Shown here: piece after piece, positions 27,721-61,499 of the stretch | How positions within the stretch are numbered: position 1 is the stretch's first letter | Layout: each line of letters starts with the position of its first letter | From: Daphnia carinata | Taxonomy: Eukaryota > Arthropoda > Branchiopoda > Diplostraca > Daphniidae | DNA length: 64,000 nt | Direction of reading: 5' to 3' | NCBI RefSeq assembly: GCF_022539665.2 | Contig: NC_081339.1 | Location: forward strand, 5,508,017-5,572,016 | Made by a program: the position numbers and the translations under genes | The notes under the pieces: model-generated | Told to the model about the DNA's origin: nothing | Databases searched by the model: none | The model's input: only the letters and a program-made list of their open reading frames with translations

Positions 27721-28980
27721 TTAAACGTTTTCTTTGTACAGAGCTATTGGATCGACCACGATGTGAGTGTAAAGTGGTTTCATTTGCAAATCAATGAGAC
27801 GATATCGCAGATTGGCAAGTCCATCCGATTCGTATCGAAGGTGACCCTCATCAAAAAGCCTCTGTCTCTGCGGATCGACATCCACCGGATCGTGATAGAG
27901 CGTCCTGTATCTCAGGTGATCCACTGGCCATTGAGGTCGAACGACAGTCATATTCAATCGTCTGATGCGACGATAGAAATCATCGTCTTCTAGTCCCGGA
28001 CCCCAAAATGCATTCGAGTAGCCATTGGCACGGATGAAATCCAACTCCGAAATGGCAATCACTCCTCCGCCGAAAAGGAACATTAACGACACCGGCCTGC
28101 GTGTAAATGATTCAATTTTTGTTATAACTCACGATTAAGTACATAGAAAAATGCGTTTTCAAACTTTTTACTTGTAATCGTGAACGTCAATAACAAAGGA
28201 CATGTGAAGGGGTCTGCCATGATCCGGGCACGAGTAGAGATTCCTGTCATCTTCCGGAAGGATATCGACATCGTGAAAAATGAAACATTCAAATTCTTCA
28301 CGGCGTTTGGCCTCTACGAATCCGATATTATGCAGCATGCCTCGATTAAAAGGTAAACCACCTGTGTACGCATAGATTTTGTTTTGAAAATGAACATTTA
28401 ATGAAAGCCTTAGTACTCGGATATGACGTCACAAGCCATTACCAAACTAACCGGTCTGTTCGACAATGAAAATGGTGTAGTGTCGCTGTTGCCTCTGCAG
28501 GAACGGATGCATGTAACGCAGGAACACTGTCAACTGTTGCTCGCGATCTCGATAGGGTACAATCAAAGCGATTTTACATCGTGCCTGGCAATCTGTTGGT
28601 TTATAACTGCCACCTCGTTTCAATCCCGCGTTCGTCATCGTGTCTTGGAAAGCAACAGAGTCATCCAAAAGAGCCGGAATCTCGGCTGACAGATCCAGCC
28701 ATCCAACTAGTAAGTGTGAGGGTAGTTATAACATTAATGATGTCTTTTAATTGTTTAAGGTTCACGTACCTGAAAGGGGAGAAACGTTCGGGCAGAGTGG
28801 CAATGTACGACGACCATCATAGCTGGACGATACTTTAGTGATAGGGAGATGATGGATTAAAAGGATTAACGATATGCTAAACAGGATAAACAAGATGACG
28901 AGGATGGCCCTTGTTTTAGATACAATCACTAGCTGATGGAAGAACACAAACCGGGGCCTCTTCCGTGTCATTTCATCCAT
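27721..28980 (-). CDS. GT7 beta-1,4-galactosyltransferase-like enzyme
   Basis: Four minus-strand exons, 28980-28770, 28706-28452, 28361-28172 and 28096-27721, join in phase to 343 residues. It is a type II membrane protein with the anchor at about residues 20-40. Family hallmarks in order: CKIALIVPYRDRE with FLRYMHPFL, FNRGMLHNIGF, the metal/UDP-binding DVD in FHDVDILPEDDRNLY, GGGVIAISELDF, NGYSNAFWGPGLEDDDFYRR, and YTHIVVDP near the end. The usual WGWGGEDDD is WGPGLEDDD. Family enzymes add Gal (or GalNAc in many arthropod members) beta-1,4 to GlcNAc or xylose in the Golgi. A leader exon further upstream is possible, because TTTTTAG precedes the ATG closely. Confidence 0.85.
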
Positions 28981-29128
28981 TGACTCCTGCCTGTCATACC
29001 CTAAAAACGTGTAAAGAGATTGTACCATCGTAAAGCAAGGAATGTAAACACTTGTATTGAAACGAACATTCACGATTATGAACGCATTAAACAAATAAAA
29101 TTGTTTCGTTTTTAAGAACCCCGATGTT

Positions 29129-30058
29129 TTAAAGTTGCGACTGGAGCAATTTATTATTGAACCAAGCGATTTCGTAAGCGTAAGGTGCGTCAATGCCCAA
29201 CAATCCAGCGGCTTTGCCCACTCCGACTGACCAAGGATTTCTCTTGGAATCGAAACGAACGAGTCCGTAATTCTCGAGTGATTGGAGGATTCTAGCCAAC
29301 CTGCGGTATTCTTCCAGCGAAAAGAAAGGCTCGTTGTCTTGCTCCTCGTTCGTATTCCCGTTGGGCAGGTGAATTTCCACGCTCAGCTGTTTCACCTTGT
29401 CCATCATTCCGGAGCTAACAATCTGCGGTAAAACGGCCCATTCGGCCGTCTCGATATCCAGTTTCAAATAATCAATGACATCGGATCTGTGAATGGATTT
29501 CAGCATGTTGTGAATCGAGTCTAACGTCCGAGTTTCAACACCTGATTGGCCGTTCCAGGTGTCGCCGTCTTTGCTACCTAATCCTAATCGGTAGAAGCGA
29601 ATCCATTCAGATCGATCGTGATCGGAAACATTCATGGAAGGATCAAAAGCGAACACGTTGCATCCGTATTGTTCCATGGCCTCGTCGAAACTCCATTCGT
29701 TGTTGATGCCGAACGAATAGACGATGCATTCATCTGGCGATGGAGCGAGGTGCGGCCTGTCTAGACACACAGCTTTCTGCCCATCCACAGCTGGGATATT
29801 GCCGACGGATATCATGACTCCGCCGAAATCTTGGACTAAACGGCAAGCACCGGAGTTGGACCAGGAAAAATAGTCGGTCAATTGATGGCCATTGAGCGTG
29901 TCCATGTCGACGTGACGCCAATCGACGTTAATGACTTGACTGGGAACATGATTGTCAACCGGAAGAACAGCGTGAATGATCACGTAGGCAAATGGGATTC
30001 CAAATATCGCCCACAACATCAACGTCTTTGTTTTGCGACGTACGATTGCCATTTGCAT
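29129..30058 (-). CDS. METTL24-like methyltransferase-domain protein, copy 1
   Basis: A single-exon frame of 309 residues. The N-terminal anchor (about residues 13-31) is followed by a lumenal domain of the Methyltransf_22/METTL24 type. Family features are CIVYSFGINNEWSFDEAME, YGCNVFAFDPSMN, DYLKLDIETAEW (a motif with acidic residues typical of SAM-binding folds) and a C-terminal stretch LVRFDSKRNPW. Human METTL24 has no firmly known substrate. In a glycosyltransferase cluster and with a Golgi-type anchor, a glycan O-methyltransferase role is a reasonable guess but unproven. It lies head-to-tail with the GT7 gene on the same strand, about 150 bases apart. Two sister genes are at 44816 and 57937. 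Confidence 0.75.
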   Translation of the reverse strand: MQMAIVRRKTKTLMLWAIFGIPFAYVIIHAVLPVDNHVPSQVINVDWRHVDMDTLNGHQLTDYFSWSNSGACRLVQDFGGVMISVGNIPAVDGQKAVCLDRPHLAPSPDECIVYSFGINNEWSFDEAMEQYGCNVFAFDPSMNVSDHDRSEWIRFYRLGLGSKDGDTWNGQSGVETRTLDSIHNMLKSIHRSDVIDYLKLDIETAEWAVLPQIVSSGMMDKVKQLSVEIHLPNGNTNEEQDNEPFFSLEEYRRLARILQSLENYGLVRFDSKRNPWSVGVGKAAGLLGIDAPYAYEIAWFNNKLLQSQL

Positions 30059-33510: not shown

Positions 33511-34509
33511 TCATGTCGAAATAAATTCAGCCATTCTTTTAGCCGTGATTGGGCAATTCTCTTCCGCCAGAATGGCGTACAATTGACGTGTTCCCATTCG
33601 AACAGGTTCGTTGGATGAGAGGAAGTTCCACAAATGAACGCCGTAACTTGAATTAATCATATTAAGCGACTGATCAGACGCATCCTCGAAATACAAATGC
33701 CAAAAGGGTGGACCGATGGGGCAGAAATGTTTGTAAGACAAAAGACAGACATCAGGGCACTTCCCAAGGCCGGTTCCATTGCTACACAATCGAACGTAGA
33801 CATCCGTCAGCGCCGTGGGTCCATGTAAATAATAATCTTCTGGATCATATCCTTTCGATAAATAATCAATGAGTTCTTTAACGAGTCTGTGCTTAGCTTC
33901 AAAATGCATAACGCCGTTGTTCAATTGCCGCCCGTCGATGCCTTCTACCAGTACAACATTGTGCAGCAGCTTCTCGTCTAATGGCTTTAAAACAACATAG
34001 TCCAGGTCCATGTAAAGGCCGCCATGTCTATACATGGAGACGAGTCGGATGTAGTCAGAGAGATGGGCCGTCCGAAATCGGCTCTGTCGCCATTCGCCGT
34101 TTTCGTACCACGACTGCAAGGCAGAGCCTTTAAAAAATTGGTCGTTGTTGATCAAAACAACATTGACGTTAGAATAATGATTATTTAGAATGTCCATCCA
34201 TGGGCCGTTGGTTCCTGAAACGTCCAGAGATTTGGCAGACATGAATAGCTGGACAGGTCTGGTAGGATTGTGTTTGGCTACCGATTCGATTGTGCAGCAC
34301 TGTTTGAAATTGAGACTTCCACGGCCACTCGTTTCGTGAAAAAAAATGCGTCTGCTGTCCATTGCGACATCTTTGTTTTGATGACGAAGCGGTGGAATAA
34401 TGAAATTGAGATAACACAATGTAACAAATGCAATACAAATAATGGTGATTATCTTTGTGGCATTTACAAATTTGTATTTCAACCGAAATTTGACGGGAAT
34501 GGTTGGCAT
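33511..34509 (-). CDS. GT32 glycosyltransferase, A4GALT-like, copy 3
   Basis: A single exon. The first ATG in frame is at 34509 (MPTIPVKFRLKYK), giving 332 residues; the open frame continues upstream only through non-ATG codons. The anchor is at about residues 18-37 (IITIICIAFVTLCYLNFII). The catalytic domain has SRRIFFHETSGRGSLNFKQCC, a DXD motif in GGLYMDLDYVVLKPL, YLHGPTAL, and the Gb3-synthase C-terminal region SYGVHLW...ENCPITAKRMAEF. It is more diverged from copies 1 and 2 than these are from each other. It lies in the same orientation as copy 4 directly upstream. A GlcNAc or Gal transferase onto glycolipid or glycoprotein ends is expected; specificity is unknown. Confidence 0.85.
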   Translation of the reverse strand: MPTIPVKFRLKYKFVNATKIITIICIAFVTLCYLNFIIPPLRHQNKDVAMDSRRIFFHETSGRGSLNFKQCCTIESVAKHNPTRPVQLFMSAKSLDVSGTNGPWMDILNNHYSNVNVVLINNDQFFKGSALQSWYENGEWRQSRFRTAHLSDYIRLVSMYRHGGLYMDLDYVVLKPLDEKLLHNVVLVEGIDGRQLNNGVMHFEAKHRLVKELIDYLSKGYDPEDYYLHGPTALTDVYVRLCSNGTGLGKCPDVCLLSYKHFCPIGPPFWHLYFEDASDQSLNMINSSYGVHLWNFLSSNEPVRMGTRQLYAILAEENCPITAKRMAEFIST

Positions 34510-34646
34510 GATGAATAACAACCGACTACTGGATACAATACATGACAGCAGTTGGACGGTGGTTAGTTGCTATGAAACTGTAAGAGCCTCGAGCAAAATC
34601 AGCTGTAAATGAAGCCCTTCTAGCGGATTGTTGCCAAGGTCAAGAA

Positions 34647-38568: not shown

Positions 38569-39843
38569 TCACCCTCGTTTAACGAATACCAGGTCATAAA
38601 ATCCTTGTCCTTTCATCAGTTCTTTGTTGTCGTATCCATTGGCCATCATGTGATTGGCTACTTGATTCAGCACTGTTTGGTTTTGCGACGTAATCTCAAC
38701 CGTTAAGGTCTGGTGCAATAAGACAGAGAAAGCTCAGAAAAAATGAATGAAAATATAAGCAAATAATTGGATTCACCTTAACATCGACAAGATGCCAGGG
38801 CACATTGGCCAGAACTTGACTTTCGGCGCCTTCGACGTCCAAGCTAAAATAGTCGACTTGGGTCCGTCCGACCGCCAACAGAATCGAGTAGAAAGGGAAA
38901 CACTGGACGTCGATTAGTCCAATGCCGTACTTTTTTAGTCTTTCGGCCTCTAGCTTCATTTGCTTTTCATTATCTTGTCGGTATATTTTTCCTGCTTGGT
39001 AGTCGGACTCGAAAGAGACCTTTACACGAATACGTCAGATTTCCTTAATGGTTATGGGAGATACGTTTAATTATTGAACAGGCAAGACGACTTACTTTGG
39101 TAGGAAAGGGCTCCGTAGAAAGGCAAACGGGTAAAGCCCAGGCATGGCGTCGTTTGGATAGCAATTTGCCAAAGGATTTTCGGTCTGGCTCGATGAGGAT
39201 TCCATTCCATTTGAGTTGACGCTCCATGAAAAGTGAATTACTACCTTCTTCCCCATCAAAAGCTCCGCACTCGACAAAGAATCCTCCAATCTTTTCAACA
39301 TCGTATTGTTTGACAGTGTTATAAACTTTGAAAAACGTGATTTGATTTCAGGAAGGGGTGATAACTATGAGCGTATACTTGATTGTGGAGGTGAGCTAGA
39401 ACTACTTTGGATTGACCAGACGACGGATCTGCCACCAACGGACGAGACAGATTGAGAGAAACATCTGGTAATGATGGCTGGTACAAGTATCGACTCCGGA
39501 TCAGTTTAATGACACACGGATGATCCTGTTGCAGCCGATTAGCGTTGACGTATTCTATAATCATTTGATCACCATTTACTAGGCAACTGTAGTTCAATGC
39601 CTTGTTTAAACGTAAAATGAACATACCTGTTGTGCATTCTAGACCAGGTGGTGGAACTAAAGTCGACCACTCTTTGCCGTAAGTCTCCCACATTAAATTA
39701 TATAGCTCACTCTTACACGTCAGATTAAAATAGGGACAATGACGAGGATATGGATACATTAGAAGCAAAGTGACAATTGCTAAGAGAATGATAACTGCAT
39801 TTCTCCGTTTGGTTCTCAAACGCCACATCACTTTGAATTTCAT
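38569..39843 (-). CDS. Star-like protein with FkbM-type methyltransferase domain, copy 1
   Basis: Minus-strand exons 39843-39627, 39554-39379, 39290-39096, 39019-38777 and 38709-38569 give 323 residues. The third exon could instead start a little upstream (acceptor near 39330), but that breaks phase. It has an anchor at about residues 15-32, a stem, then a domain with FFVECGAFDGEEGSNSLFME (motif I-like), LKWNGILIEPDRKSF, VQCFPFYSILLAVG, VDYFSLDVEGAESQVL and a C-terminal GFYDLVFVKRG. This is the Methyltransf_21 fold of Drosophila Star-related proteins. Star is an export factor for EGF ligands; others may be true methyltransferases. The role here is not fixed. The gene is divergent with the SGNH gene at 40207; its paralog is at 43235. 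Confidence 0.75.
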
Positions 39844-40206
39844 TTTCGTTCTACCCTTCTTTTGTTTTGGTGGAGCGGATTACTTTTAAGCGTTACCACC
39901 CAACAAACAGACCTCTAAGGCAGGCCTTCCTAAGATCTGCCCGATGTTCTCTCTATACAGCCGGCTGTAACACAAAGCCATGAGCTTTTCTTCTCTTTGC
40001 GTGAAGTGAAGTCAATATGCCCCTTGAGCGTTCAATGTTGTGGCAACTCTGACCTGATAACTAGAGGCTATGTAACCAGAAATGGAAAGCAAACTATTTC
40101 TCTGCATCCACAATTCAGCCTTGATTGAATCAACACAGACAATGTCATACCTATTCAATTTCTGATGTGAATCTTTTTCCTTTTTTTTTTAATCGACAGA
40201 TCAACA
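39844..40206. promoter_or_regulatory. Shared upstream region of two divergent genes
   Basis: 363 bases between the start codons of the Star-like gene (minus) and the SGNH gene (plus). No TATA box is evident and no exon is recognised. Confidence 0.4.
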
Positions 40207-41420
40207 ATGGCAATGCTCAGGAAAGAAGCTTTAATGGCCAAAAGGAAAACATTGTTGGCTATTTTTTTAGCGACCGCGTTCGTGTTGATGTTGTACGTAA
40301 ACCCTGGAGAACAACGAAAAAGTCTTCGCTTGTGTTCGAGGAGCATGCTGGACGGAAATCAATACACCAAGGAAACAAACGGAAATTTCCTGAGTGTCAA
40401 TCAACATAGACCTTGTGTGCTTCGTCAGTACAGCATCGAAGATACTGCATCGTGTTTAGATTGGCTCTCGTCGTCCATCAAAAACGATCCATCAGCTGAT
40501 GCAAAGTCACGGGGTAAATTCCACATTGCTTTTGCTGGTGATTCGAGAATCCGCATTCAATATCTCAGTTTCCTCAAGGTACGTAATCAAGATTGACGTG
40601 AAAAATCGATCGTTATAACGTCCATTGTTTTGCCAGTTGATTCCGGACTACGACCGAGACTCGGAAATGGATCCAACTGCCAAACATAAAGACGCAGATG
40701 TGGTCAGTCCCTTGTTTGGTGATTTGCTGATCAGTTTCCGCTGGCGTCCGCTTATCGCCGGTAAAGTGGTTGAGGATTTGATCCACTGGATCGATATTCT
40801 TGACAATGGCATTAAGCAAAGAAAGAATAGCAGCGATTACCCTCCCGATGTCCTTGTCATCGGTATGGCTTCGTGGGACATGCTGCAACAAGAAGGTGAC
40901 GATCATATTTGGTATCAGAAAGGGGTGCAAGGATTGGTTCCATTGCTCCAGAAGCTAATGCTCCATAGCAAAGACTTAGTACTTACAAACAATGGCAAAT
41001 CGAGGGATGTGCGTCATCGCAAAATCATTTGGTTAAACCAGTACACGACATTTGATTTCTTCGCCGACAACGCTGGAGCAAATCGCGTCATATACAAAGA
41101 GAAACTGCAACATTACAATCAAATTGCTCGGCAAATTTTCAGGTATAACTTCAGATATAAATTATGTGGAATGGGATTTGGATTAACTGTGATTGATAAA
41201 CAGGGGCAGCGGCATAACAGTGTGGGATTCCGGTGATGCGATTGCTGAAGAGGCCGTTCGTGCATGCAAATTGCATCATCGCTACGAACGCGTCAAAGAC
41301 TTTATGAGCGTGGCCTATATCAATTGCAAAGATTACATTCACGCTGGCTACATTGCATTGCAACAAATGACTCAACTCCTCTACAATGACGTGTGCAATA
41401 ATCAACCTGATGAATTTTAA
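40207..41420 (+). CDS. Membrane-anchored SGNH protein like the catalytic domain of CASD1, copy 1
   Basis: Exons 40207-40578, 40637-41142 and 41204-41420, in phase; 364 residues. It has a membrane anchor (about 14-30) and then an SGNH-hydrolase-like domain. The nucleophile block is FHIAFAGDSRIRIQYLSFLK. Later blocks are DVLVIGMASWDML, KIIWLNQYTTF, ITVWDSGDAIAEE, and a final D-x-x-H in CKDYIHAGY, which would supply the Asp/His of the triad. The plan matches the N-terminal part of CASD1, the sialic acid O-acetyltransferase, but the large multi-span acyltransferase part is absent. An esterase or acyltransferase acting on glycans in the Golgi is possible. NXPE/PC-esterase proteins share this fold. 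It converges on the fucosyltransferase at 41481. Confidence 0.7.
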
Positions 41421-41480
41421 ACGCCTCTTGTTGAATGAAATTATTTATTAATCGAAAACTAGAGCCAGATTGATGATTAA

Positions 41481-42803
41481 CTATGAAAATGATTGATTTT
41501 TTAGCGAGGATGCGGGAACACAAGGGACATCATCGAACCACCATTTACCAATATCATCGTAGCTTTCTGAAGATTGGCTGTCGATTGGCTCGTTTAGTTT
41601 TGCGCAAAGGGCACACCATCCATCAAAAGGCCTTCGATCCACCAGCCAATCTTTCTTCCATTCGAAATACCGCGCGTAGAGGTTAGGATTTTCGTCCAGT
41701 AAAATTAGATAGTCTGCCAGGGCTTTTGGTGATTGGAAATCCGCGGCGTGGATAAATGAATTGGATGGAGCGTAGGCGGAATAATCCGCCCCACCGTAAA
41801 CGATGGGAACAGCGCCCACCTGGAGGGCCCGATAGAATTTCTCGGTGACGTAATCAGGACAGAGGGAGTTTTCTGCTGCGATGTAGAATTTGTAGTCGGC
41901 AAGAATGCTGTCGCATTCCAAGCTGTTCCAAGGCACGCAATTGAGGCCTTTGCTTCCGCATTCCCCGTACACGTCGATGGAGGGGAAGAAATCAAACAGC
42001 CGGCGAAAGAAAGTCTCACGACGACTCGCAGTCTTGCATTTCGAGACGAACCAAGCGATTTTCTTCGTCTTATTGCTCTTGCTGCTATTTTGCGTAATGT
42101 TAGTCATCATCGTTTGCAGGAATCTTCCTGGGTTTGGTGGCAGCAATCCAGGAGGCAAAGGAACTGGTAGAGTATCAATGCTTGTTGAATTCTTTCGCCT
42201 TAAAACACCGTAAGGTTCAGGTGAGTAGATGTCAGAATCTCGACGATACGTCATCGTCCAGTTGAAGAATCCTTTCGGTGTTGGCGACTGGAAAACCGGA
42301 TACAACCTGCCGGATGATTCGGCTTCGTAAAACAGGAAGACATAACGTTGATGTGGCATCCTGTGCCTTGGCGTGTCGTTAACTGGGTCGTAATTGATGG
42401 GGTGGAAGATGATTGCATCACTTTCGTTTAATGAATTTCTATCGTTCGTTGTCACGCAGTTGGTGATCCGGCAACCTGCACGTACGAAAGGCTCCCGACC
42501 CATTCCGAACTTGAAATCTTTCCAGTCGAAGAAACTCGTCCAAAACAAGATTCGTTTGAATTGTTTACTTGCTGGTGAAGCGTCTTGCAGCAGCTGATTA
42601 GAAATTTCATTGCGATGTCGAATATTGACGTTGATTGGTGTGGCACTTTTCACATTGTGAATCGGTGTGATATAGTACGACAAAATGAAGATGAATGCGA
42701 ATAGGCAAACTGGCGTGGCTATTTTCCATAGGACTCTAGTTCGGAGCTGACGACGGACGAGGCAAATGGCAACTAGACATTTTTTACTGATGAAATTTCT
42801 CAT
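41481..42803 (-). CDS. GT10 alpha-1,3-fucosyltransferase, copy 2
   Basis: One coding exon, 440 residues from ATG 42803 (MRNFISKKC). The frame stays open upstream, but the apparent GTG start there is part of a splice donor (AAGGTGAGC). The acceptor GTTTCAG lies just before TCAAAATG, so a leader intron of about 55 bases is the better reading. The anchor is at about residues 25-45. GT10 signatures: FNWTMTYRRDSDI, KIAWFVSKCKTASRRETFFRR, DYKFYIAAENSLCPDYVTEKFYR, VPIVYGGADYSAYAPSNSFI and GWCALCAKL. It is a sister of the enzymes at 32144, 46032 and 48501. It faces the SGNH gene tail-to-tail with 60 bases between stops. Golgi fucosyltransferase; acceptor unknown. Confidence 0.9.
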   Translation of the reverse strand: MRNFISKKCLVAICLVRRQLRTRVLWKIATPVCLFAFIFILSYYITPIHNVKSATPINVNIRHRNEISNQLLQDASPASKQFKRILFWTSFFDWKDFKFGMGREPFVRAGCRITNCVTTNDRNSLNESDAIIFHPINYDPVNDTPRHRMPHQRYVFLFYEAESSGRLYPVFQSPTPKGFFNWTMTYRRDSDIYSPEPYGVLRRKNSTSIDTLPVPLPPGLLPPNPGRFLQTMMTNITQNSSKSNKTKKIAWFVSKCKTASRRETFFRRLFDFFPSIDVYGECGSKGLNCVPWNSLECDSILADYKFYIAAENSLCPDYVTEKFYRALQVGAVPIVYGGADYSAYAPSNSFIHAADFQSPKALADYLILLDENPNLYARYFEWKKDWLVDRRPFDGWCALCAKLNEPIDSQSSESYDDIGKWWFDDVPCVPASSLKNQSFS

Positions 42804-42869
42804 TTTGACTGAAACGCCGAGATTGCTATCAAAGAAAATGTTCAAATTTTGGGATATTTTGCTCACCTT

Positions 42870-46031: not shown

Positions 46032-47369
46032 TTAATCGACCACGACTCGCGATTTTTTCACCAGCCTTCTCCTACTGCTGTTGCTCTTGGATTTGTAATG
46101 AGGCCGGAAACATCGTCCTGGATGCCAATTGGGCAATAAACTCGGATAATATTTGATTTGGCCTTGGTCAGCGTGCAATTTCTGGCAGAGGTCGCAAAAG
46201 CCGTGATTGACCATATCTTGGAGATTGGACTCGACAACGTAATCATCCTTCCACCACAGGTACTCATTGTACAGCGTGTCGTTAGCGTCAAGCATTTTTA
46301 GGTAGTCGGCCAACTGACCCGGTTCGAATTCCAACGCGTCGATGTACGAATGTTCGGGCGCCAATTGGTCGTAATCGGCACCGCCGTAAACGACGGGCAC
46401 GATATTACGCAAGCTCATGATGTTGAAAAACTTCTCAGTTACGTATTCACTGCAGATGGCGTTCTCGAAGGACAGGTAGAATTTGTAATTGGATTCCAAC
46501 ATGTCGTAACATTCGGGCGTCGATGTCAACAGTTCGTGAGGTTGGCAGCGCAGACCAGAGCCGAGGTCGTGTTCGTCGCAAAAGCCGTACACGTCCACCT
46601 TCACGTGCTTCCTCAATCGCTTAATGTAATGTTCTCGACGTCCATCTGTCGTGCAGTGAGAAATCATGGCGGCCACAAGACTCTTCTTTTTCTTGTTTTT
46701 TTCATTGCAAATGGCATTGGTCGTGTCGGTGGTTTCATTGTTCATTTCAATCCTTTGGCAGTTGAGCTTTGCGTGAGTCTCTCTGATCCTCACCTGAACT
46801 TCGTCGCTGGTCGTTGGGGCCGATGGTTTCGGTCGGATCCTTCCGTATAGCAAAAGAACGTCCGAATCCATTCGGTAGGTCATTGTCCAGTTGAAATAAT
46901 TGTCGTATTCGGTAATGTTCATCGGCTCGATGGACGGTGGTGGTTCCTGAGTGAAAAAGACGAGTCGCTGTTTAGGCCGACGCTGGAAATGTGGCCGTTT
47001 GTTCATCCAGAATTCGTCGTTGAAATTGAGTAGAATAGCGTCGTAAGATTCGAGAGGACGGTCCGGGTACTGGTGTGGACTGTTGACGATTTCGCAGTCG
47101 CTAACTGGGCATCCGTGCTGGATGAAAGCGTCGTGTCCAGTACCGAAAATGGTCATCTCAGATCGTCTCGGTCCATTCCAGAAGAGGATCGTTTTGATTC
47201 GAGTTGGATTCCGTTTGCTATTCGTGTTCTGCTGTTGCAGCTGTTGCCACGAATGGTAGTAACGTTGCACGTAGTCCCAATCACCGTAACTAATGACGAG
47301 CATAATCAGCAGACTGTTGAGGAGGCCAATGGCCGTCAGTTTGACGAATCGTTCTCTGCTCGGACGCAT
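46032..47369 (-). CDS. GT10 alpha-1,3-fucosyltransferase, copy 3 (divergent)
   Basis: A single exon, 445 residues from ATG 47369. The anchor is at about residues 9-26. GT10 features: YFNWTMTYRMDSDVLLLYG (Met where its sisters have Arg), SLVAAMISHCTTDGRREHYI, NYKFYLSFENAICSEYVTEKFFN, VPVVYGGADYDQLAPEHSYI and GFCDLCQKL. A linker with Asn/Lys-rich sequence (about 185-215) and a basic tail (KSKSNSSRRRLVKKSR) set it apart from the other three. AWF in the SHC block is replaced by AAM. It is probably active, since the Glu and Lys/Arg of the GDP-fucose region are kept, but acceptor use may differ. It converges with the METTL24-like gene at 44816. Confidence 0.9.
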   Translation of the reverse strand: MRPSRERFVKLTAIGLLNSLLIMLVISYGDWDYVQRYYHSWQQLQQQNTNSKRNPTRIKTILFWNGPRRSEMTIFGTGHDAFIQHGCPVSDCEIVNSPHQYPDRPLESYDAILLNFNDEFWMNKRPHFQRRPKQRLVFFTQEPPPSIEPMNITEYDNYFNWTMTYRMDSDVLLLYGRIRPKPSAPTTSDEVQVRIRETHAKLNCQRIEMNNETTDTTNAICNEKNKKKKSLVAAMISHCTTDGRREHYIKRLRKHVKVDVYGFCDEHDLGSGLRCQPHELLTSTPECYDMLESNYKFYLSFENAICSEYVTEKFFNIMSLRNIVPVVYGGADYDQLAPEHSYIDALEFEPGQLADYLKMLDANDTLYNEYLWWKDDYVVESNLQDMVNHGFCDLCQKLHADQGQIKYYPSLLPNWHPGRCFRPHYKSKSNSSRRRLVKKSRVVVD

Positions 47370-48500
47370 GAAGAAGAAACACTGGGGATAAGCTGGCCGA
47401 TTGTTGTTGAGATGCCCTGGAGATCAGTCACGAACTGATTCAATATAGGAATCCCCAGTTTTATCCTTTCAATTTTCAATGTCCACAAGTGATGGAATCA
47501 GAATGGTAAAAGAAAATCATTGAACATCGCCAACTGGTCAAAATCACAAAGCCAGAAGAATTGTGAAAACTGCCAGAGTCGACGACGAGTTGTTTTCTTC
47601 TGCACGCGATTCTTCTTCTTCATTCCTTATTTTTCTTTCTTGTTGTTGTCTGTGTTTGGCTTTTAGGTGTCTGATTTCATGACCCGTCACACAGCCCCAG
47701 AAAGTTCGTTGACTTCCCTTAACAAGCTCTTGTTTCTCATTTGGCGATGGGAAATCTGTCCAGCAACTGGAGAAATTGTGTTTTTGTTTTTTTTAACAAG
47801 CGCATCGCGTTTGTTTGTCAGTAACACGGAGATGTTATGTTGGCACGCGTTTGGGCCTAACATAATAAATTTTAAAAAAAACCTCCCCCTTTCCATAGGT
47901 GCGTATCTGAATCAATGCAGTGTGAGATCACTGATATTCGTTCAATGCCTCCGGACAGCTTCCCCACTATTATTAGGGTTGTTTTGACGTCTGTACAGCT
48001 ACTGACTCAACACGTTGCATGACTGACATACCAACAAAAGATAACATGGCCTCCCAACATTGAAACGGATTACTTTTAATGGCATTTTAATCATGGGCTA
48101 CCAGTGCCCTTGATGTATCTATAGTGCCCTGCATAATCATTGTGGGCAGTTACAACGAAAAGGTGGGTAAACAAGATTCTCTGACCCTGGACGAAGGCGA
48201 AAAGGTAATTAGGTTCTACGTGCAAGGACTGCGTGCCTGAGGAGACACGTCCAATTCAGTACATCGATGACATTGCGCCTGGAAACGTGATCCCTTCCGC
48301 GTTACGCGCAACAGCCACGTAGACTGTTACAGTTTACCTTGGCTGAAGAGAAGGTTTGCCTCGAGTTCTTTCAACTCTGAACAAGTGATTGTTCAATCTT
48401 TGTTCTAATCGTTGTCTAGATTTTGTGGACTCTCGTATTAGCCGACCCTGCAGAACTTTCGCCATTGCTCGCTTACGCCTCGCTAGATTGGAAAAACACT
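47370..48500. other. Intergenic region between divergent fucosyltransferase genes
   Basis: Upstream of the minus-strand gene at 46032 and the plus-strand gene at 48501. A short coding-like string (PCIIIVGSYNEKVGKQDSLT, about 48128-48187, open to a stop at 48238) has no partner exon that I could find. The rest has no coding signature. Confidence 0.4.
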
Positions 48501-49794: not shown

Positions 49795-50195
49795 TTGTTT
49801 TTGAGGCTGTTTGATTTTGCGTACGTGAATCTTTCAGACGTTAAATAAACGGACGACATGCCCAATTAAAAAGAACGTCGGCCACCGGTGATAAGGAAAA
49901 CGTATCGTTCCTCTTTGTTTGCAAGTGACGCGTGAATCTGTCCTAGTTCTTGCCTGTATCGTTTGTGATGCAACAGGACTGTGGCCTCGTGCGAGAAAAA
50001 GAAATGAATCCAATCAACTTACGATTGGAGGGCTTCGAATGTCTTGCAAAGGATAGCCACTCCGCCTCTGGCCAAGACCGCTGCGTTCACGTTGCATGGC
50101 AAGCGTTCGTCCATCTGTTGAAAGACGAAAAGTACCAGTCACAAAAGCAAGGCGGCCGCCGGTTTTCATATTCCCGATTTTCAATTCGTCACTTG
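49795..50195. other. Intergenic, 3' end of fucosyltransferase copy 4 and leader of the next gene
   Basis: AATAAA near 49843 is the probable poly(A) signal. The following frame is open from 49950 and joins the SGNH gene, but an upstream start there would place about 80 residues before the anchor. Confidence 0.4.
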
Positions 50196-51591
50196 ATGTC
50201 TGATTTTCGGTTGGATCGTCCATCTGTGATGTTTGCTTCCAGTTCAGTAGCTCACTATTCGTTCATACACGTCATAGTGCTCTTGGTTATGACCGTCATC
50301 GTGGCACTGTCGCTTCGTTCGGCAATGTCGATGAAGCTAACCGTTCGTTTTATTGGAAGAAACAGATTTGCCGATGACGGGCATTCCCTCAATGGCACAG
50401 CAGCAGACGATTACTTCAATCGCCGTTACTTTGACATCAAAAATGACTTGATCAGCCACGATGACGGCGACGAATTCAATCGAGGCCAAATGCCCAGCAT
50501 CAAGATGTACACGAAAGAAGATGTGGTCCAATGTTTCGACTTGCTATCATCGTCCCGCCAAAGCGGAAACCAACGGCCAATGCATTTTGCTTTCGTCGGA
50601 GATTCGACCGTTCGCCAACACTTTGTCAGCTTCCTCAAAGTACTCGTTCCATCAACGTTTAGTTTCAAAATGTGTGATCGGTCATTTTTGGTTGTCCGTT
50701 ATTCAATTGTTTGCCCCTTTCTGACGGTCATGGCACTGGAAATGGCAGTGGATTCCCGACTACGATCGCAGGACAACGGCGAGCAACGCGTCAGCGTTTG
50801 CTGAATACTACTTCCACGAGGACCGTAATTTGACGAGCGCCCTTCAAAATAGCCTAAGAGTATCTTTTTATTGGCGCGATCTCATCAGAGAAGAGGTGCT
50901 AGCCGATTTCGAACGATGGTCATCGGCGAGCAACCCAACGTCGCCCGACTTTATCCTATTAGGTAACAGCAAGCTTCCGTGTGCGACAGCATTGCTCTTT
51001 ATTGACAGTGTCAGTCTTTTAACTTTGCACAAAGATGGATGACGAATTTAAGAAACCATTCTGTGCGTCTTTGACGGACACCGCAGGAATAACGGCCCAC
51101 CACGTAGGCACCAACGACGTCAGCCCCGATTTGGAGACGTTCGTCAGCCTGTTGGAAGGCGAGCTGCTACCGCTAATCAAAAAGAGTCTGGCTGCTCATC
51201 CGCAACAGAAAATCGTGTGGCTGCATCAGAGCCGAACAGTCGAAGAAATGACTCCCGATTTTTACGACATCTACGCCGACGACATCGATAAATACAACAA
51301 GGAGATTCGTCGCGTTTTTCGGTATAAAACCTAAGTAGAAACTGGTCGTACATGGGCGATGAAATGCTATGTTTTCCAACTGAACGCAGTGGCACGGGCG
51401 TGATCATCTGGGATTCCATCAACGCGATCGTAGAAGAAAATGTGCGGGCGTGTGACCTGACGGCATTTGAGCGCCGCGACCGAAAGATGTACCTGAGTTG
51501 TTACGATTTCATCCATCCAGGATTCAGGGCCGTATCGTTGGGAGGCCAGCTGATCTTCAATCACCTTTGCAAAATCGACGATGTTTATTGA
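50196..51591 (+). CDS. Membrane-anchored SGNH protein like the catalytic domain of CASD1, copy 2
   Basis: Exons 50196-50639, 50749-50962, 51108-51321 and 51390-51591, in phase; 357 residues. ATG 50196 (MSDFRLDRPS) is chosen because it places the anchor (FIHVIVLLVMTVIVALSL) near residues 20-40; the frame is open back to an ATG at 49950. The nucleophile block is MHFAFVGDSTVRQHFVSFLK. Later blocks are PDYDR, SFYWRDLI, KIVWLHQSRTV, GVIIWDSINAIVEENV, and a D-x-x-H in SCYDFIHPGF. The junction before TNDVSPDLETF is less certain than the others. Intron 1 and the last intron sit at the same places as in the paralog at 40207. As there, no multi-span acyltransferase part follows. Confidence 0.65.
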
Positions 51592-52415: not shown

Positions 52416-54091
52416 TCATAAAATTACGTCGTCATCTCCGATGACGCACTGGGGTTTGTTGCGATAGAAATCCCCGATGAGCAGGTGAGAATCGTGTTGA
52501 GAGATCGTAACCCAGGCGAGAACTAGAGTGAGATCGCAAACGCCAGGTAGTTCCACGTCGAGGATGCTGGTTTAAGGAATCGAGTGAACGCCGTACGGTT
52601 TAGAAAGATGTGAGCTCAAGTTACATCTATCAACAGCATTTCAAGTCACCTGAATGAGCCGGATGGAAAACGGAGTTCGATGCCAGCTTTCTCGGTGCAC
52701 AGGCCAGTGTAGTACGTATCGTCGAAAGGTATCATAGGTATCGTCTGAAACGCAGCCAATAACGGTATGATTGTGCTTCCGGTCATCAAGACAGCAGCTC
52801 CATTAAAGTAATGAGGATATTCCTTCCAAGGCCATTCCTCAAATGAAACGTTCCATTTGCCTTCTTAAAAGAAAAAGAGAAATAATAATAATAATAATAA
52901 TACGAAAGGTTTCTTTTTTTTTTCCATTGACAATTTGTGTAGTCTATACGGTGTTGACACATGCAGCTAAACGTATGACATCAGTTTGGCTGAAATATGA
53001 GTTTGCCAGTCTATACCTCGATTAACGTCGTAATTTCCCGGAGACGAGCCGAACATGATTTGATCAGAGCGACGATAGGCCTGAACGAAACGAGAGAGGC
53101 TGTGCACGTTAACGTAGACGTCATCGTCGACTTTAAGAAGGAAGTCGAATTGAGCAGCGCAAAATCTGTACAACCAGTTAAACAGACTAGCCACTTTCAA
53201 TGTCACGTTTCTGTCAGAATCGATCAGCTCAGTCTGGATGATATCGCCGTACAACAGACTCTCTTCTTCAATACGACGTTGAGTCATCGCGTCGTCGTTT
53301 CGCGGCGATCCTACGAAGAAAGCCAAACCAACAATACCAATCAAGCCGTTGTTTTCATTATGAGTTGGTAAACGTTTAGCCCAAGTCTGTCGAATCAGAT
53401 TTCGTTTTTCAAAATTGGACGGAGCTGAATCGATGGCGACGAAAAGAGTTCGATTGGCAGCCGCCACTTCACGGCACGCAGCGTGAGTGATGCGGTAGTT
53501 GAAAGACAGGACGTCGTTGACGACGGCACCGAATTCCGGTTTGAGTGGCTCCACATCAGCCAATGGTGATAGACGTAGACGAGCCACTGCGTATTGGATA
53601 TAGTTCTCCACGCCCGGATAAGGAGTGCCACGCAAAGCGGTGGCCATGTAATCGAATAACGCGTGACTCACCGTCACCTGCGAGCTATTACTTCGGAAAA
53701 CATTTCCTTCGTCTCTATTGAACGTTTTCCCGTATCGGCTAGCGTGTCTTCTTCTTCGCCGTCTTTCACGTTCATATTGTTTGACCTTTAGAATGAACGT
53801 TGGGCTGTGCAACAAGGAGATTTCGCTTTCAGCCAGGCACGCGTTCAGTTTCGATTCGAGCATTGATTTGTCTTGCATTAATCGGTTCTTCGTTTCAGCT
53901 GTTGGCTGCTCCGCCTCGCCGTGGCCACTCGTTTTCGCTTCGCGATTCATTGCGTATAATAAATTCATCGTGAGAAAATTGAACACGATGATGAGCGTGG
54001 GCAGTAACGAGAGGGGAACAACAACGACACGGGGAAGTTTAGACAATCGGCGTGCACCTGAGAATGGCATTGCCACGCTCGAATGGTTCAT
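52416..54091 (-). CDS. GT31 beta-1,3-glycosyltransferase, copy 1
   Basis: Minus-strand exons 54091-53017, 52860-52650 and 52566-52416; 478 residues. The frame continues upstream of ATG 54091 only to a TTG. The anchor is at about residues 22-45. A long stem follows with a part shared by all three GT31 genes here (YPGVENY..YAVARL.LSPL.DV.PL). The Galactosyl_T domain has FVAIDSAPSNFEKRNLIRQTW, GDIIQTELIDSDRNVTLK, FDFLLKVDDDVYVN (DDD metal site), WNVSFEEWPWKEYP, and DDTYYTGLC in place of the usual EDVY.G. A Cys-rich C-terminal tail follows. Family enzymes add Gal, GalNAc or GlcNAc beta-1,3 in the Golgi. EDVY changed to DDTY is a conservative change at a key acidic site. Confidence 0.85.
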
Positions 54092-54341
54092 TCTATCTAC
54101 TCTGTGAGCAGGCGCGTCCAATTGGCAACCTTTATTTAAAAAAGGAAAAGAAAACTATGCATGTAATATAGGCAAATCAAAAGTTGGTGCGTGTAGGGCT
54201 ATGTCGCCAAAGTTTTGTGACCGTAGTATTGACGTGCGTTTACACAGGTAGCGTTACAGTATAAACTGCTACGACGATTACGGGTCTAGACGATTACATT
54301 TCTTCAAACACACAAAACTAATGGATGTTTCAGTTACAAAT

Positions 54342-56946: not shown

Positions 56947-57130
56947 AAGCCAAAAATGATCTGGCATATGCATTCTTCTTGGCCTCATGTCAGCCCAAGT
57001 TCCATATGACAGCAAGCTCAATGCCAACGGTCGGTCGCGAAGAAACATGAAAAAACCTCCTTGTTCTAATCCGTTTGCTGGATCAAGCCCCAACGCCAAA
57101 TGCAAATAGCTATTATTTGATGTCGTGTTA

Positions 57131-57928: not shown

Positions 57929-57936
57929 GACGGCCG

Positions 57937-58887
57937 TTAGATGATGGGTGAAAAGTACCTGGAGTTGTACCATGCCAGATCCATATCGATTTCACCTTTC
58001 TTGTATCGCGACACCTGCAAAGGGACTTGGAAGTACGGATTGGGCCGTGAACTGAATCGAACAAACCCTCCGGCCGGCCCTTGAGCTTTGGCTTCTAGAT
58101 TCCTGATGATTTGAACCCGGTGGCGTAAGACTTGCAACGGATCGTCAGCTTCGAAATGGAGCTCGACGACCAGCTGTTTGACTTTGTTGGCAAGAAAACC
58201 GGCGTTCATCATTTGCGGTATGGCGTCCCATTCGGAGGTTTCAACGTCGAGTTTCAGGACGTCGATGAGCGCCGATTCTCCGTGTCGGTTTTTCAGTATG
58301 TCGTAGATGGACGTGGCAGTTCTCATTTTCCATTTTTTGCTAGGATGCAATCTATCTTGGCCGTCCAGACCGATGTCGAAGAAATGGACGAACTGACTCC
58401 GGTCGTGACCGCTGACGTTCATCGATGGATCGAAAGAGTAAACTTGGCAGCCGTATGTGGCCATAGCGTCCTCGAAAGACCATTCGTTGTTGATGCCAAA
58501 AGAGTAGACCAAACAGTTGCCCGCATCGGGTGTGATGGACCTATCAAAGCAAACGGCTTTGTGGCCATCGGGAGCGATCACGCCGTTGAAATTTCCGACG
58601 TTGAATCCGATATCGACAGCGTTTTGGCAAGCCGTGCTGTTGGTCCAACGCAAATATTGATACATCTCCTGGGCTGACATCGATTCGGTTAATGTCTTGC
58701 TGTTGGTCCAAGGGTCGTGACCGTCGACGCAGACCGCGCTGAGCGGCGACGAGTGATCCTTCTGCCCCTCACCGGAAGGCCAACGAGGAGGGAGAAGAAA
58801 AACCAACCAGGTCGCAAAACTGCCAACCGCCAAGTAGAACAGGCCGCCGTTTCGGCTTGTCATGACCCACTTGAAAACGCGACGCAT
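57937..58887 (-). CDS. METTL24-like methyltransferase-domain protein, copy 3
   Basis: A single exon, 316 residues from ATG 58887. The anchor is at about residues 14-32 (GGLFYLAVGSFATWLVFLL). The domain has CLVYSFGINNEWSFEDAM, YGCQVYSFDPSMNVSGHDRS, IDVLKLDVETSEWDAIP, QLVVELHFEADDP, FVRFSSRPNPYF and MDLAWYN. It is closest in motif detail to the copy at 29129 (FGINNEWSF, DPSMNVS.HDRS). It is divergent from GT31 copy 3 at 59803 and convergent with GT31 copy 2. A TATA-like TATAAATG on the minus strand (about 58973-58980) could serve it. The repeat downstream predicts a further paralog beyond base 64000. Confidence 0.75.
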   Translation of the reverse strand: MRRVFKWVMTSRNGGLFYLAVGSFATWLVFLLPPRWPSGEGQKDHSSPLSAVCVDGHDPWTNSKTLTESMSAQEMYQYLRWTNSTACQNAVDIGFNVGNFNGVIAPDGHKAVCFDRSITPDAGNCLVYSFGINNEWSFEDAMATYGCQVYSFDPSMNVSGHDRSQFVHFFDIGLDGQDRLHPSKKWKMRTATSIYDILKNRHGESALIDVLKLDVETSEWDAIPQMMNAGFLANKVKQLVVELHFEADDPLQVLRHRVQIIRNLEAKAQGPAGGFVRFSSRPNPYFQVPLQVSRYKKGEIDMDLAWYNSRYFSPII

Positions 58888-59802
58888 CTTTTTTTCGGAT
58901 GTGGCGACAAAAAAAGCTCACAAGTGCTACAGCTCACGAGGCGTCTGTCTCAGAGGAACCTGTACGAGCTACATTTATAGCCTAGCGTAGACGTTTTTCG
59001 TTTTCATTTTCAATTGACTTGACGTTTCATGCCAGCCATGGGTAACGCCGCGGCACGTAGCACCTCCTACTCACCACGTATACGCCCTGCACGCACGTGT
59101 ACGCCGTGCACACGTATACGTTTGGCTTCGACAGCAACTCGTTCTTCATTTCTTGCGGTTGGCGAATCATTTGCTACATTGCTTGCAGCTACGAGGGGAC
59201 GAAGCAACCGACGTCATACCGCCCAATAGGAAAGCGTTCTTTCTCCTCCTTTTCCAAAAACCTTCTTAAGGGCCAAGAAAGGTGGCCGAATTTCACAGAC
59301 ATTTCTATGTGTTACAGGTGCAATCCGTCAGCCATCAGCTCGATCGAGTAGACTACGTGCCGCTGTAACACAGCTCTCTGGCGATCGAAGTTTTGTCAAT
59401 CAGTTGGTTTGGTTTCAAGTCTTTAGAAAAACGACAGCTAGCCGTTAAACAATCCCGAGGTTTGCCGATAGAACACGACATTTGTATTGAACGTGTGGAC
59501 GCTTACGTCCGTGTGTACGACGGGTATTCACCTGTTGCGAGTATTGAGCGCGGTATCGACAAAGACGGTGAGAACAAAACGAAAGAAAACAAACCAAAAG
59601 GAAGCAACCCATATGCGACACTTGCTTAACAATTATACCGTACAGCATTATATAGACCGCATATATATGTACAGAGTACATGGAACACGAGGCAATGGTC
59701 GATTCGTCTCTTTACGTAGTTGCTCAACACGGCAGAGTGCGCAGATTCTGTTTCCGCTGTGTCCAAACGTCATTTTCGAAATGTCAGCTTGTTAGGACGA
59801 AA
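58888..59802. other. Intergenic region between divergent genes
   Basis: Upstream of the METTL24-like gene (minus) and GT31 copy 3 (plus). No coding exon is recognised, though a leader exon of the GT31 gene may lie here. TATATAGACC near 59650 is a TATA candidate. Confidence 0.4.
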
Positions 59803-61499
59803 ATGTCAAGGTCCCGGCATGCATGCCGGCGCCTGTCGTCTCCTTGTCGCATCGTCGTTGTTGCCTTACTGATGCTATTTCCGTTCTTCTTTATCTTTGA
59901 ATTGGGAATGACCGATTGGGTATGCACCGAGTCGCGCGAAGGTCAGTCACTCGAGCAGCACGGGTCACAGCAGCTAACAGCGGCCACTGTTCGAAGGCTA
60001 TCGCTAGAAAATGAAATGCTCCGATTAGGAATAAGCGAATGCCGTTCTAAGGCAAAAAGCAGCCAAACAGAAACCATAGCGCACTTCAAAGACGTCAATG
60101 CGAAACTGAAGGCGACGGCGAAGCGATGCCAACGAGAGAGGACCGAGTGGCAACAAAAGAAGCAAGTCAGCGCTCAACGGGCAACAGAGACTGTCGAAGA
60201 TGAACACATTGCCGCAGTTGGAAGAGCCGATGTGCGCCGAGCATTTGTTCCACGTCATAACGACACCAGTTTCTACAATATGTCTTATCCCGGAGTAGAA
60301 GCTCACACGCGCTACGCAGCCAGTCGTTCAGCTCTGTCGGCATTGACGGGCGTAGAGCCGCTCGTGCCCGGATTCGGCCCCGTCATTAACCATGTCTTTC
60401 CTTTCCGATACCGCATCTCCATTCCGCCGTGCCCCGATTTTTTCCCTAAGGACAGTCGAACTGTCTTCGTAGCTGTCATATCGGCTTCGCATCATTTTGA
60501 AAAGCGTCGAGCGATTCGAAACACGTGGAGAACGCATCTGAATGCAGCGGCGCAGGAAGACGGCCCGCTACCAATATCAGTGGGTTTCGCTTTCGTGCTG
60601 GGATTGCCAAACGATGACGAAACGCAGAGTAGGATCGAAGAGGAAAACGACCTTCACGGCGACATCATTCAGATAGAGATGGCTGACGTTTACAATAGTT
60701 TGCCGCGCAAGGTGCTCGGCACGCTCAACTGGCTCCACGCAAACTGTTCCAAAGTCGATTTCGCATTCAAAGTGGACGACGATGTCTACGTCAACGTGCG
60801 CAATCTAGTCCAATTTGTTCGGAACCACCACCGGTCTTATCACAGCGTGTTTGGCTATGGTAATTTTGATCGCGTTCCCATGCGGCTGGGAGATGCGATG
60901 AGTCCCGAACACGTAAAATGGACCATCACTTTTGAAGAGTATCCATGGAACACCTATCCCAACTACATGTCCGGCCCAGCCTATGTGTTGCACGGAAGTA
61001 CGATTCGTCTGTTATTGGCTGCTTGCCAGACGACGCCAATGATTCGCTTGGAAGACGTTTACATAACCAGCATGTGCGCAGAAAAGGCGGGCGTCAAGAT
61101 GCAATTCTCCGTCGGCCCATCCTGGTAATATACACATTTTTTTCTTTTCTTTTTCTTTTCTTTCTTTCTTTATTTATTGCGATCGAATGAAGCATTCAGT
61201 ACCCCTTAAATCATAACGCTTACCTGAATCATTTTTTCCTCAAAACCACCAGGGTTTACTTTGATCCAGGGCGTATGGTTCCAACTGCGTGTGGACTCAG
61301 GCAATACATCGCGTGGCCAAGTGAAAATCACACGCATTCCCATACGGCGGTCGAAAATTTCTATTCCCTCAATAAGACGCGATGCGAGACGATCAACGCT
61401 GACGGAACCTACACACCAGTCGATCCTCACGAGCCCGTCCATTTCCGTTTTAGCCAGACAAAGACACCGGCATCGAGCACGATGATCGAACAAAACTGA
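59803..61499 (+). CDS. GT31 beta-1,3-glycosyltransferase, copy 3
   Basis: Two exons, 59803-61124 and 61253-61499; 522 residues from ATG 59803 (MSRSRHACRR). An in-frame ATG at 59680 would add 41 residues before the anchor and is less likely. The anchor is at about residues 22-42. The stem has the shared block YPGVEAHTRYAASRSALSAL and VPGFGPVINHVFPF. The catalytic part has VFVAVISASHHFEKRRAIRNTW, GDIIQIEMADVYNSLPRK, FAFKVDDDVYVN, WTITFEEYPWNTYPNYM and IRLEDVYITSMC. The extra C-terminal region ends with EPVHFRFSQTKT. The first intron found in copies 1 and 2 is absent, leaving a fused exon, while the second intron is kept at the same place. Confidence 0.85.

What the first reader, a model, noticed from the sequence alone, without database searches (positions are those of the whole stretch)
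27721..61499. A 34-kb cluster of at least 18 Golgi-type glycan enzyme genes from unrelated families
Seen: between 27.7 and 61.5 kb lie one GT7, four GT10, two GT32, one C1GALT1-type and three other GT31 enzymes, three METTL24-like and two Star-like methyltransferase-fold proteins, and two CASD1-like SGNH proteins. Only one small secreted protein is clearly unrelated. Known: animal glycosyltransferase genes are usually dispersed or in single-family tandem arrays. A mixed set covering core extension, fucosylation and possible methyl and acetyl capping looks like a glycan biosynthesis gene cluster in an animal. Inference: the genes act on the same glycans or are kept together by linked selection.
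Basis: partly seen in the sequence, partly recalled or inferred. Interest (0 to 1): 0.9.

Follow-up and report, generated by a model that had tools for sequence, protein, structure and literature searches.

The report
Mixed glycan-enzyme gene cluster in Daphnia
A water flea chromosome carries a dense cluster of about thirty genes from several families of enzymes that are thought to build or trim sugar chains, one of several such clusters in its genome and similar in kind to a locus that controls resistance to a parasitic bacterium in a related species.

Summary
Window 27.7-61.5 kb carries 18 genes: GT7 1, GT10 4, GT32 2, C1GALT-type 1, GT31 3, METTL24-like 3, FkbM-type 2, SGNH-type 2. Pfam supports 16 above cut-off; the SGNH pair rests on motifs, and its CASD1 label failed. 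The source is Daphnia carinata. The cluster is larger than stated: two more GT32 genes lie at 4.1-11.8 kb, and it runs past the window to about 111 kb with 28 loci. It is one of seven clusters of three or more of these families, which hold 70 of 193 loci; random rotation gives 0.08 such clusters. P450 and sulfotransferase loci do not join them; trypsin hardly does. Its GT10 and METTL24-like genes each come from at least three clades, some with closest kin in other clusters, so it is no simple tandem array; one GT10 pair shows a conversion-like tract over its catalytic half. D. sinensis has three of the families close together. The kind is known: the D. magna Pasteuria Resistance Complex is a glycosyltransferase-rich locus, and its likely counterpart here is on contig C6. 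Most likely this is a second locus that diversifies surface glycans; a shared pathway is untested.

The parts
4140..5201 (+). GT32 (A4GALT-type, Gb3_synth), single open frame
   Evidence: PF04572 114.4 bits, PF04488 47.6 bits
10709..11767 (+). GT32 (A4GALT-type), paralogue of 4140-5201
   Evidence: PF04572 125.4 bits; 69.5% aa identity, dN 0.21, dS 0.67
27724..29199 (-). GT7 (beta-1,4-galactosyltransferase type), about 4 coding exons; N-terminal limit uncertain
   Evidence: spliced model; PF13733 167.6 and PF02709 56.3 bits
29129..30058 (-). METTL24-like methyltransferase-fold protein 1
   Evidence: PF13383 59.3 bits
32141..33412 (+). GT10 (alpha-1,3-fucosyltransferase type) 1
   Evidence: PF00852 211.3, PF17039 77.5 bits; D. 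sinensis GHT06_010106 95% in the domain
33511..34569 (-). GT32 1
   Evidence: PF04572 97.4 bits
34647..35903 (-). GT32 2
   Evidence: PF04572 66 bits
36179..37426 (-). C1GALT1-type GT31, about 4 exons; 5' end uncertain
   Evidence: PF02434 33.3 bits on spliced model; KADDDT and EDSYLG stretches
38572..39879 (-).
   Evidence: PF05050 46.3 bits on spliced model
40171..41399 (+). SGNH-type protein 1, about 3 exons
   Evidence: GDSRIR and DYIHAG motifs; no Pfam match
41481..42899 (-). GT10 2
   Evidence: PF00852 181.9 bits
43238..44441 (-). FkbM-domain protein 2, about 4 exons
   Evidence: PF05050 56.5 bits on spliced model
44798..45772 (+). METTL24-like 2
   Evidence: PF13383 70.5 bits; D. magna relative P0122 85% over 97%
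46032..47423 (-). GT10 3
   Evidence: PF00852 195.2 bits
48420..49794 (+). GT10 4, two or more exons
   Evidence: PF00852 210.4 bits; D. carinata protein P0014 contains this frame
49947..51588 (+). SGNH-type protein 2, about 4 exons; 5' end uncertain
   Evidence: GDSTVR and DFIHPG motifs; PF13472 20.6 bits, below cut-off
52649..54154 (-). GT31 1 (Galactosyl_T)
   Evidence: PF01762 78.3 bits
55071..56575 (+). GT31 2
   Evidence: PF01762 77.6 bits; second exon match C9:5564361-5564567
57937..58917 (-). METTL24-like 3; tandem copy just outside the window at C9:5572029-5573093
   Evidence: PF13383 54.6 bits; duplication of about 1.8 kb at 83%
59656..61128 (+). GT31 3
   Evidence: PF01762 136.9 bits; D. 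carinata P0241 identical over 58%

Best explanation
This is a second Pasteuria-Resistance-Complex-like cluster: a fast-evolving locus of type II Golgi enzymes that add or cap the outer sugars of surface glycans. Shown: (1) the cluster is real and non-random; (2) it is one of seven clusters of three or more of the same families; (3) its GT10 and METTL24-like members come from at least three clades each, some with closest kin in other clusters, so it did not grow by local tandem duplication alone. Supported but not proved: small blocks were copied between clusters, and gene conversion acts inside this one (one pair seen). Inferred: GT7, GT31 and C1GALT-type enzymes extend chains, GT32 and GT10 cap them with galactose-type sugars and fucose, and the METTL24-like, FkbM and SGNH proteins may add methyl or acetyl groups. 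Because gaining or losing a capping enzyme changes what a lectin or adhesin meets, gene gain, loss and conversion would alter the coat of gut and cuticle, and selection by attaching parasites would keep diverse copies. I put the structural claim at about 0.95 and the whole mechanism, parasite selection included, at about 0.5.
For: Co-localisation: 7 clusters with three or more families hold 70 of 193 loci (null mean 0.084 clusters and 0.45 genes, maxima 3 and 17 in 5000 rotations). With C9:5.4-5.8 Mb taken out, 8 of 21 family pairs are still reached by only 9 or fewer of 5000 rotations: GT10-GT32, GT10-GT31, GT10-FkbM, GT10-SGNH, GT32-GT31, GT32-GT7, GT32-SGNH, GT31-FkbM. Controls: P450, 2 of 65 loci near any glyco locus (null 3.1); sulfotransferase 0 of 9. 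Kinship: six of the seven GT10 of the 111-kb cluster are rejected as one clade (p-AU 3e-84), and GT10 2 (C9:5549557) pairs with C6:763095 (100/98); METTL24-like rows of the window need three separate changes on starred branches. Block copying: GT10 C9:5579155 and GT32 C9:5581570 fall in small clades with GT10 C9:5782155 (99/97) and GT32 C9:5775468 (98, quick tree). Conversion: GT10 frames 5578558 and 5595822, 17 kb apart and inverted, agree in 477 of 480 bases of the catalytic half, 65-80% just upstream, and at about random level outside the frames; C-domain 98.9%, N-domain 69.9%. Constraint: dN/dS 0.32 for the GT32 pair, 0.34 for that GT10 pair. Precedent: the D. magna PR-locus has fucosyltransferases, alpha-1,4-glycosyltransferases, PC-esterases, a methyltransferase and a galactosyltransferase (PMC5340410, passages); the E-locus region has four sugar transferases (PMC8042741, passages).
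Against: No expression, glycan or resistance data for D. carinata. METTL24-like genes co-cluster only in C9:5.4-5.8 Mb: without it none of their six pairs stands out (each reached by 232 or more of 5000). The sulfotransferase prediction failed. Trypsin loci are slightly raised near glyco loci (11 of 111 against 5.3, reached by 523 of 5000), mainly by GT31 (7 against 1.2, 84 of 5000). The tandem METTL24-like pair has dN/dS about 0.72, weak constraint. Strands and order are mixed; no neighbour arrangement recurs more than three times.
Confidence: 0.5

Rival explanations
1. Shared history without shared function: one ancestral mixed segment was copied and broken up between C9 and C6 and along C9, so the families stay together by descent and are not selected to be neighbours.
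For: Paralogue pairs shared between clusters: GT10 and GT32 between C9:5.58 and 5.78 Mb; GT10 (C9:5549557 with C6:763095, 100/98) and GT31 (C9:5584859 with C6:742805, 93, quick tree) between C9 and C6. Mixed order and strand.
Against: Gene orders are not kept between clusters; the one pair of window GT10s compared is saturated at silent sites, so the company is old, yet the frames are open; pure history should have eroded it.
Confidence: 0.3
2. A true biosynthetic gene cluster: the genes form one pathway (core extension, fucosylation, methyl and acetyl capping) and are kept together for co-regulation, as first read.
For: Eight complementary kinds of enzyme in 34 kb; ten other frames of 111 to 206 residues there have no Pfam match. 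Three of the families lie within 25 tag numbers in D. sinensis.
Against: No expression data; mixed strands; sulfotransferases absent; several copies of most families instead of one per step; roles of three families unproven.
Confidence: 0.15
3. Assembly artefact, or chance piling up of expanded families in gene-dense or duplication-prone DNA.
For: A suspected assembly duplicate exists elsewhere (C6:2-37 kb against C6:731-743 kb); trypsin-GT31 proximity is mildly raised.
Against: P450 (65 loci) shows no excess and trypsin (111 loci) little; the C6 duplicate was removed before counting; D. sinensis relatives lie within 25 tag numbers and two D. magna orthologues on one contig.
Confidence: 0.03

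Closest known systems
Pasteuria Resistance Complex / PR-locus / ABC supergene with the F and G loci of Daphnia magna, chromosome 4 (PMC5340410, PMC9894429, PMC11917490; passages)
   Same: Same kinds of gene side by side: fucosyltransferases, alpha-1,4-glycosyltransferases, galactosyltransferase, PC-esterase, methyltransferase; private copies per haplotype in D. magna.
   Different: The likely D. carinata counterpart is C6:0.72-0.81 Mb next to sestrin (sestrin is among the PR-locus genes in PMC5340410). The window lies on C9, has many METTL24-like genes, a GT7 and a C1GALT-type gene, and no resistance mapping.
E-locus region, D. magna chromosome 5 (PMC8042741, PMC12811391, PMC10329263; passages)
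   Same: A second, unlinked resistance region with sugar transferases and haplotype-private fucosyltransferases.
   Different: Whether C9 corresponds to D. magna chromosome 5 could not be tested; only four sugar transferases are reported in a region of more than 3 Mb.
Single-family glycosyltransferase tandem arrays (example here: about five GT10 genes at C6:1039-1050 kb)
   Same: Lineage-specific expansion of Golgi enzymes.
   Different: The window interleaves eight kinds of gene, and its GT10s are not one clade.
Plant and fungal biosynthetic gene clusters (recalled)
   Same: Enzyme families of related chemistry side by side.
   Different: Several paralogues of most families; no evidence for co-expression or one product.

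Membership tests
Pasteuria Resistance Complex (orthologous locus) | Neighbourhood of sestrin, one of the PR-locus genes | tested here: not met
   All six sestrin matches lie at C6:804283-807614, next to another mixed cluster at C6:722-798 kb; other flanking genes were not searched
PRC-like glycan-enzyme cluster (kind) | GT10 and A4GALT-type GT32 interleaved with esterase-fold, methyltransferase and galactosyltransferase genes | tested here: met
   the SGNH genes by motif only; comparison list from PMC5340410 passages
PRC-like glycan-enzyme cluster (kind) | Non-homologous haplotypes and presence/absence variation | not testable with these tools
   one genome only
PRC-like glycan-enzyme cluster (kind) | Association with parasite attachment | not testable with these tools
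   no phenotype data
Biosynthetic gene cluster | Non-random grouping of different enzyme families | tested here: met
Biosynthetic gene cluster | Co-expression and a shared product | not testable with these tools
   no expression or glycan data
Biosynthetic gene cluster | Kept together in relatives | tested here: inconclusive
   D. sinensis tags 010081, 010088, 010106 on one contig, only 010106 a clear orthologue; D. magna P0018 and P0122 on one contig of 13.69 Mb, positions unknown
Single-family tandem array | Members of the cluster form one clade per family | tested here: not met
   Six of seven cluster GT10 rejected as one clade, p-AU 3e-84; some local copies do exist, such as METTL24-like 3 and its neighbour
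GT10 fucosyltransferases | PF17039 + PF00852 and the F-E-N-S/A-x-C-x-D/E-Y-V-T-E-K stretch (recalled) | tested here: met
   exact pattern in 3 of 4, the fourth reads AENSLCPDYVTEK
CASD1 | SGNH domain plus multi-pass acyltransferase domain (Cas1p; recalled) | tested here: not met
   no such Pfam match for either spliced model; only SGNH-type motifs
METTL24-like | PF13383 domain and class I methyltransferase fold | tested here: met
   AlphaFold2 model of METTL24-like 2, pLDDT 87.8; best solved match RlmM, E 7.5e-5 but TM 0.31
METTL24-like | Sugar O-methyltransferase activity | not testable with these tools
   no solved relative by sequence at E up to 1; no paper found

The most novel reading that the evidence does not exclude
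Daphnia carries a genome-wide system for diversifying its glycan coat: several separate mixed clusters built from one recurring set of Golgi enzyme families, which exchange gene blocks and convert each other's catalytic halves while the acceptor-side halves diverge. The known resistance supergene would be one of these clusters and the window the core of the largest, making surface glycan structure a combinatorial, parasite-driven trait loosely comparable to MHC diversity.
Probability: 0.3. Interest if true: 0.85.

Novelty: new member of a known kind. Interest (0 to 1): 0.6.

Why it matters
Resistance of Daphnia to Pasteuria is a leading case of Red Queen coevolution whose molecular basis is open; fucosyltransferases are candidates only. 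That glycan enzymes of several families gather at seven places, and that the largest is not the counterpart of the mapped complex, gives a list of loci to test, suggests that resistance loci belong to one genomic class, and offers an unusual animal example of mixed enzyme-family clustering.

Tried and rejected
Chance: rejected. Attraction of expanded families in general: no excess for P450, a slight one for trypsin. Purely local origin: rejected for GT10. A fixed gene order or orientation: no neighbour arrangement recurs more than three times. My prediction that Golgi sulfotransferases join the clusters failed. Fringe PF02434 showed no copy of the C1GALT-type gene in the other clusters but also missed the window's own copy, so that search was too weak to count. 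Which D. magna chromosome corresponds to C9: chromosome lengths were not found in the passages seen. A link between METTL24-like proteins and known sugar methyltransferases was sought in paper listings and by structure without result.

Errors of mine: the first GT10 tree held four rows read on the wrong strand (made); one search replaces it, and only one search is used for GT10. The other three trees hold none of those rows. The spliced models favour splice-site score over exon length, so some (GT31 2, GT7, C1GALT-type) lack pieces. A first co-localisation run used guessed contig lengths; one search replaces it, with C4 still guessed.
Full report
Source. The window is C9:5508017-5572016 of a 108-Mb genome in 106 contigs. 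A protein named Daphnia carinata, P0014, contains the window's GT10 frame at 48751-49794 and lies on a contig of 9,910,348 bases, the length of C9; P0241, also D. carinata, is identical over 58% of the frame at 59656. The genome is therefore D. carinata.

Gene content. Between 27.7 and 61.5 kb there are 18 genes of eight kinds (parts list), about one per 1.9 kb on mixed strands. Ten other frames of 111 to 206 residues in or next to the stretch have no Pfam match (one of them, 28765-29382, holds the first GT7 exon); shorter genes were not sought. Counting the two outer GT32, all 20 window genes have a hydrophobic stretch within the first 150 residues of the frame, as type II Golgi enzymes do (18 of 20 at 1.65 or more on the Kyte-Doolittle scale, GT32 at 10709 and the C1GALT-type model at 1.59), and the first catalytic stretch looked for is exact in 19 of 20 and varied in GT10 2. 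The C1GALT-type, FkbM, GT7 and SGNH genes rest on approximate spliced models. The SGNH genes are not CASD1 by the domain test. The METTL24-like family has a class I methyltransferase fold (pLDDT 87.8) but only distant solved relatives (RlmM, E 7.5e-5, TM 0.31; the FkbM protein 2py6 at rank 14), so sugar methylation is an inference. O-methylated fucose and hexoses are known in invertebrate glycans (PMC6272458, passages).

Extent. The left end lies inside the window: GT32 at 4140 and 10709, followed by other genes such as a mitochondrial carrier at 19891 and a papain-type protease at 27013. To the right ten more loci of the METTL24-like, GT32, GT10, GT31 and FkbM families follow up to C9:5624518, among them a copper monooxygenase fragment and frames without a family match. 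Further out I saw a Med15 and an amine oxidase frame.

Genome-wide test. Seven families were searched in the whole genome: GT10 80 matches, METTL24-like 23, GT32 25, GT31 55, FkbM 25, GT7 22, SGNH 15. After merging exon matches, dropping 4 FkbM rows that are METTL24-like loci and removing the C6:1-40 kb repeat, 193 loci remained. Single linkage at 25 kb gave 88 groups, of which 7 hold three or more families and 70 of 193 loci: C9:5513-5625, C6:722-798, C6:302-339, C9:5761-5783, C9:6045-6059, C9:6957-6980 and C6:466-479 kb. Independent rotation of each family gave 0.084 such groups on average and never more than 3 in 5000. The test keeps clustering within families, uses a guessed length for C4 and leaves out the small contigs. 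With C9:5.4-5.8 Mb taken out, 8 of 21 pairs are still reached by at most 9 of 5000 rotations, while the six METTL24-like pairs fall to background. Controls: P450 (2 of 65 near any glyco locus, null 3.1) and sulfotransferase loci (0 of 9) show no excess; trypsin shows a slight one (11 of 111 against 5.3, reached by 523 of 5000; with GT31 alone 7 against 1.2, 84 of 5000).

Origin. Trees were made of the loci I could read: GT10 39 of 63 merged loci; METTL24-like 19 of 22, GT32 22 of 24, GT31 28 of 55 matches. The four window GT10 need at least three separate origins on starred branches, and so do the three METTL24-like; for GT31 one origin is not ruled out. Some members are local: GT10 1 and GT10 4 are nearest to each other by path (71% identical), and METTL24-like 3 has a tandem copy just past the window. 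Others have kin in other clusters: GT10 2 pairs with C6:763095 (100/98); the two GT10 past the window group with C9:5782155 (99/97); GT32 2 and C9:5581570 group with C9:5775468 (98); GT31 at C9:5584859 pairs with C6:742805 (93). The GT10 and GT32 kinships between 5.58 and 5.78 Mb suggest block duplication. GT10 frames 5578558 and 5595822, in opposite orientation, agree in 477 of 480 bases of the catalytic half, 65-80% just upstream, and at about random level outside the frames and in the first 150 bases; silent divergence runs from 1.56 to near 0 along the frame. This is the mark of gene conversion, although an assembly mosaic cannot be excluded without reads. It makes the presumed donor-binding half uniform (98.9%) and leaves the N-terminal half, thought to meet the acceptor (recalled), at 69.9%. 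One such pair was found; the METTL24-like tandem pair shows no such step.

Relatives. D. sinensis has the orthologue of GT10 1 (95% in the domain) as GHT06_010106, with a METTL24-like GHT06_010081 and a GT31 GHT06_010088 on the same contig. The METTL24-like protein fits METTL24-like 2 best but at only 75% in the domain, and the GT31 scores best against C9:6054857, so neither is a sure orthologue. The tags lie 25 numbers apart; if they follow gene order, the families are neighbours there too, in an order (METTL24, GT31, GT10) unlike the window's. D. magna P0122 (METTL24-like 2, 91% in the domain) and P0018 (GT10 4, 91%) share a contig of 13,691,525 bases; P0301, which fits the C6:742805 exon at 87% over 118 residues (though C3:4095646, a longer row, scores higher in total), lies on one of 13,367,246. 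The window cluster is thus probably on a different D. magna chromosome from the resistance complex. D. pulex keeps GT10 1 at 84% in the domain.

Literature. I read passages, not whole papers. PMC5340410 lists fucosyltransferases, alpha-1,4-glycosyltransferases, PC-esterases, a methyltransferase and a galactosyltransferase in the D. magna PR-locus, with sestrin among its genes; PMC9894429, PMC11917490 and PMC8557431 add fucosyltransferase, galactosyltransferase, N-acetylglucosaminyltransferase and 9-O-acetyltransferase-like candidates in or near it. PMC8042741, PMC10329263 and PMC12811391 describe sugar transferases at the unlinked E locus. PMC11193740 held none of the six terms. Naser-Khdour et al. 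2024, cited there, was not found in the library and could already describe more. In the listings, some of them capped, I saw no paper on a D. carinata cluster or on co-clustering of these families across a Daphnia genome.

Verdict. The nearest known thing is the D. magna resistance complex, and this looks like a new, separate member of that kind, larger in this genome than the complex's likely counterpart.

Noticed in passing
C9:5578558-5579745 (L021) and C9:5595822-5597039 (L023): Inverted GT10 pair with a conversion-like tract confined to the catalytic half.
   Followed up: partly
C6:2082-15765 and C6:731336-743158: GT10, GT31 and SGNH matches recur with equal scores at an offset of about 729.26 kb: an assembly duplicate or a recent segmental duplication at the contig end, part of the PRC-like cluster.
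   Followed up: partly
C9:1451871-1485903 and C9:3892160-3914248: P450 matches with identical scores in two places 2.4 Mb apart: duplicated P450 array or assembly duplicate.
   Followed up: no
C9:5593020-5593722 (L023) and C9:5583530-5583867 (L022): DNA similar to METTL24-like genes outside the long frames, possibly decayed copies.
   Followed up: no
C6:1039131-1049806: Tandem array of about five GT10 genes whose domain matches in two pieces, unlike the GT10 of the mixed clusters, most of which match in one.
   Followed up: no
C3:3700-3725, 4095-4100 and 4770-4775 kb: FkbM and GT31 loci near each other at three further places.
   Followed up: partly
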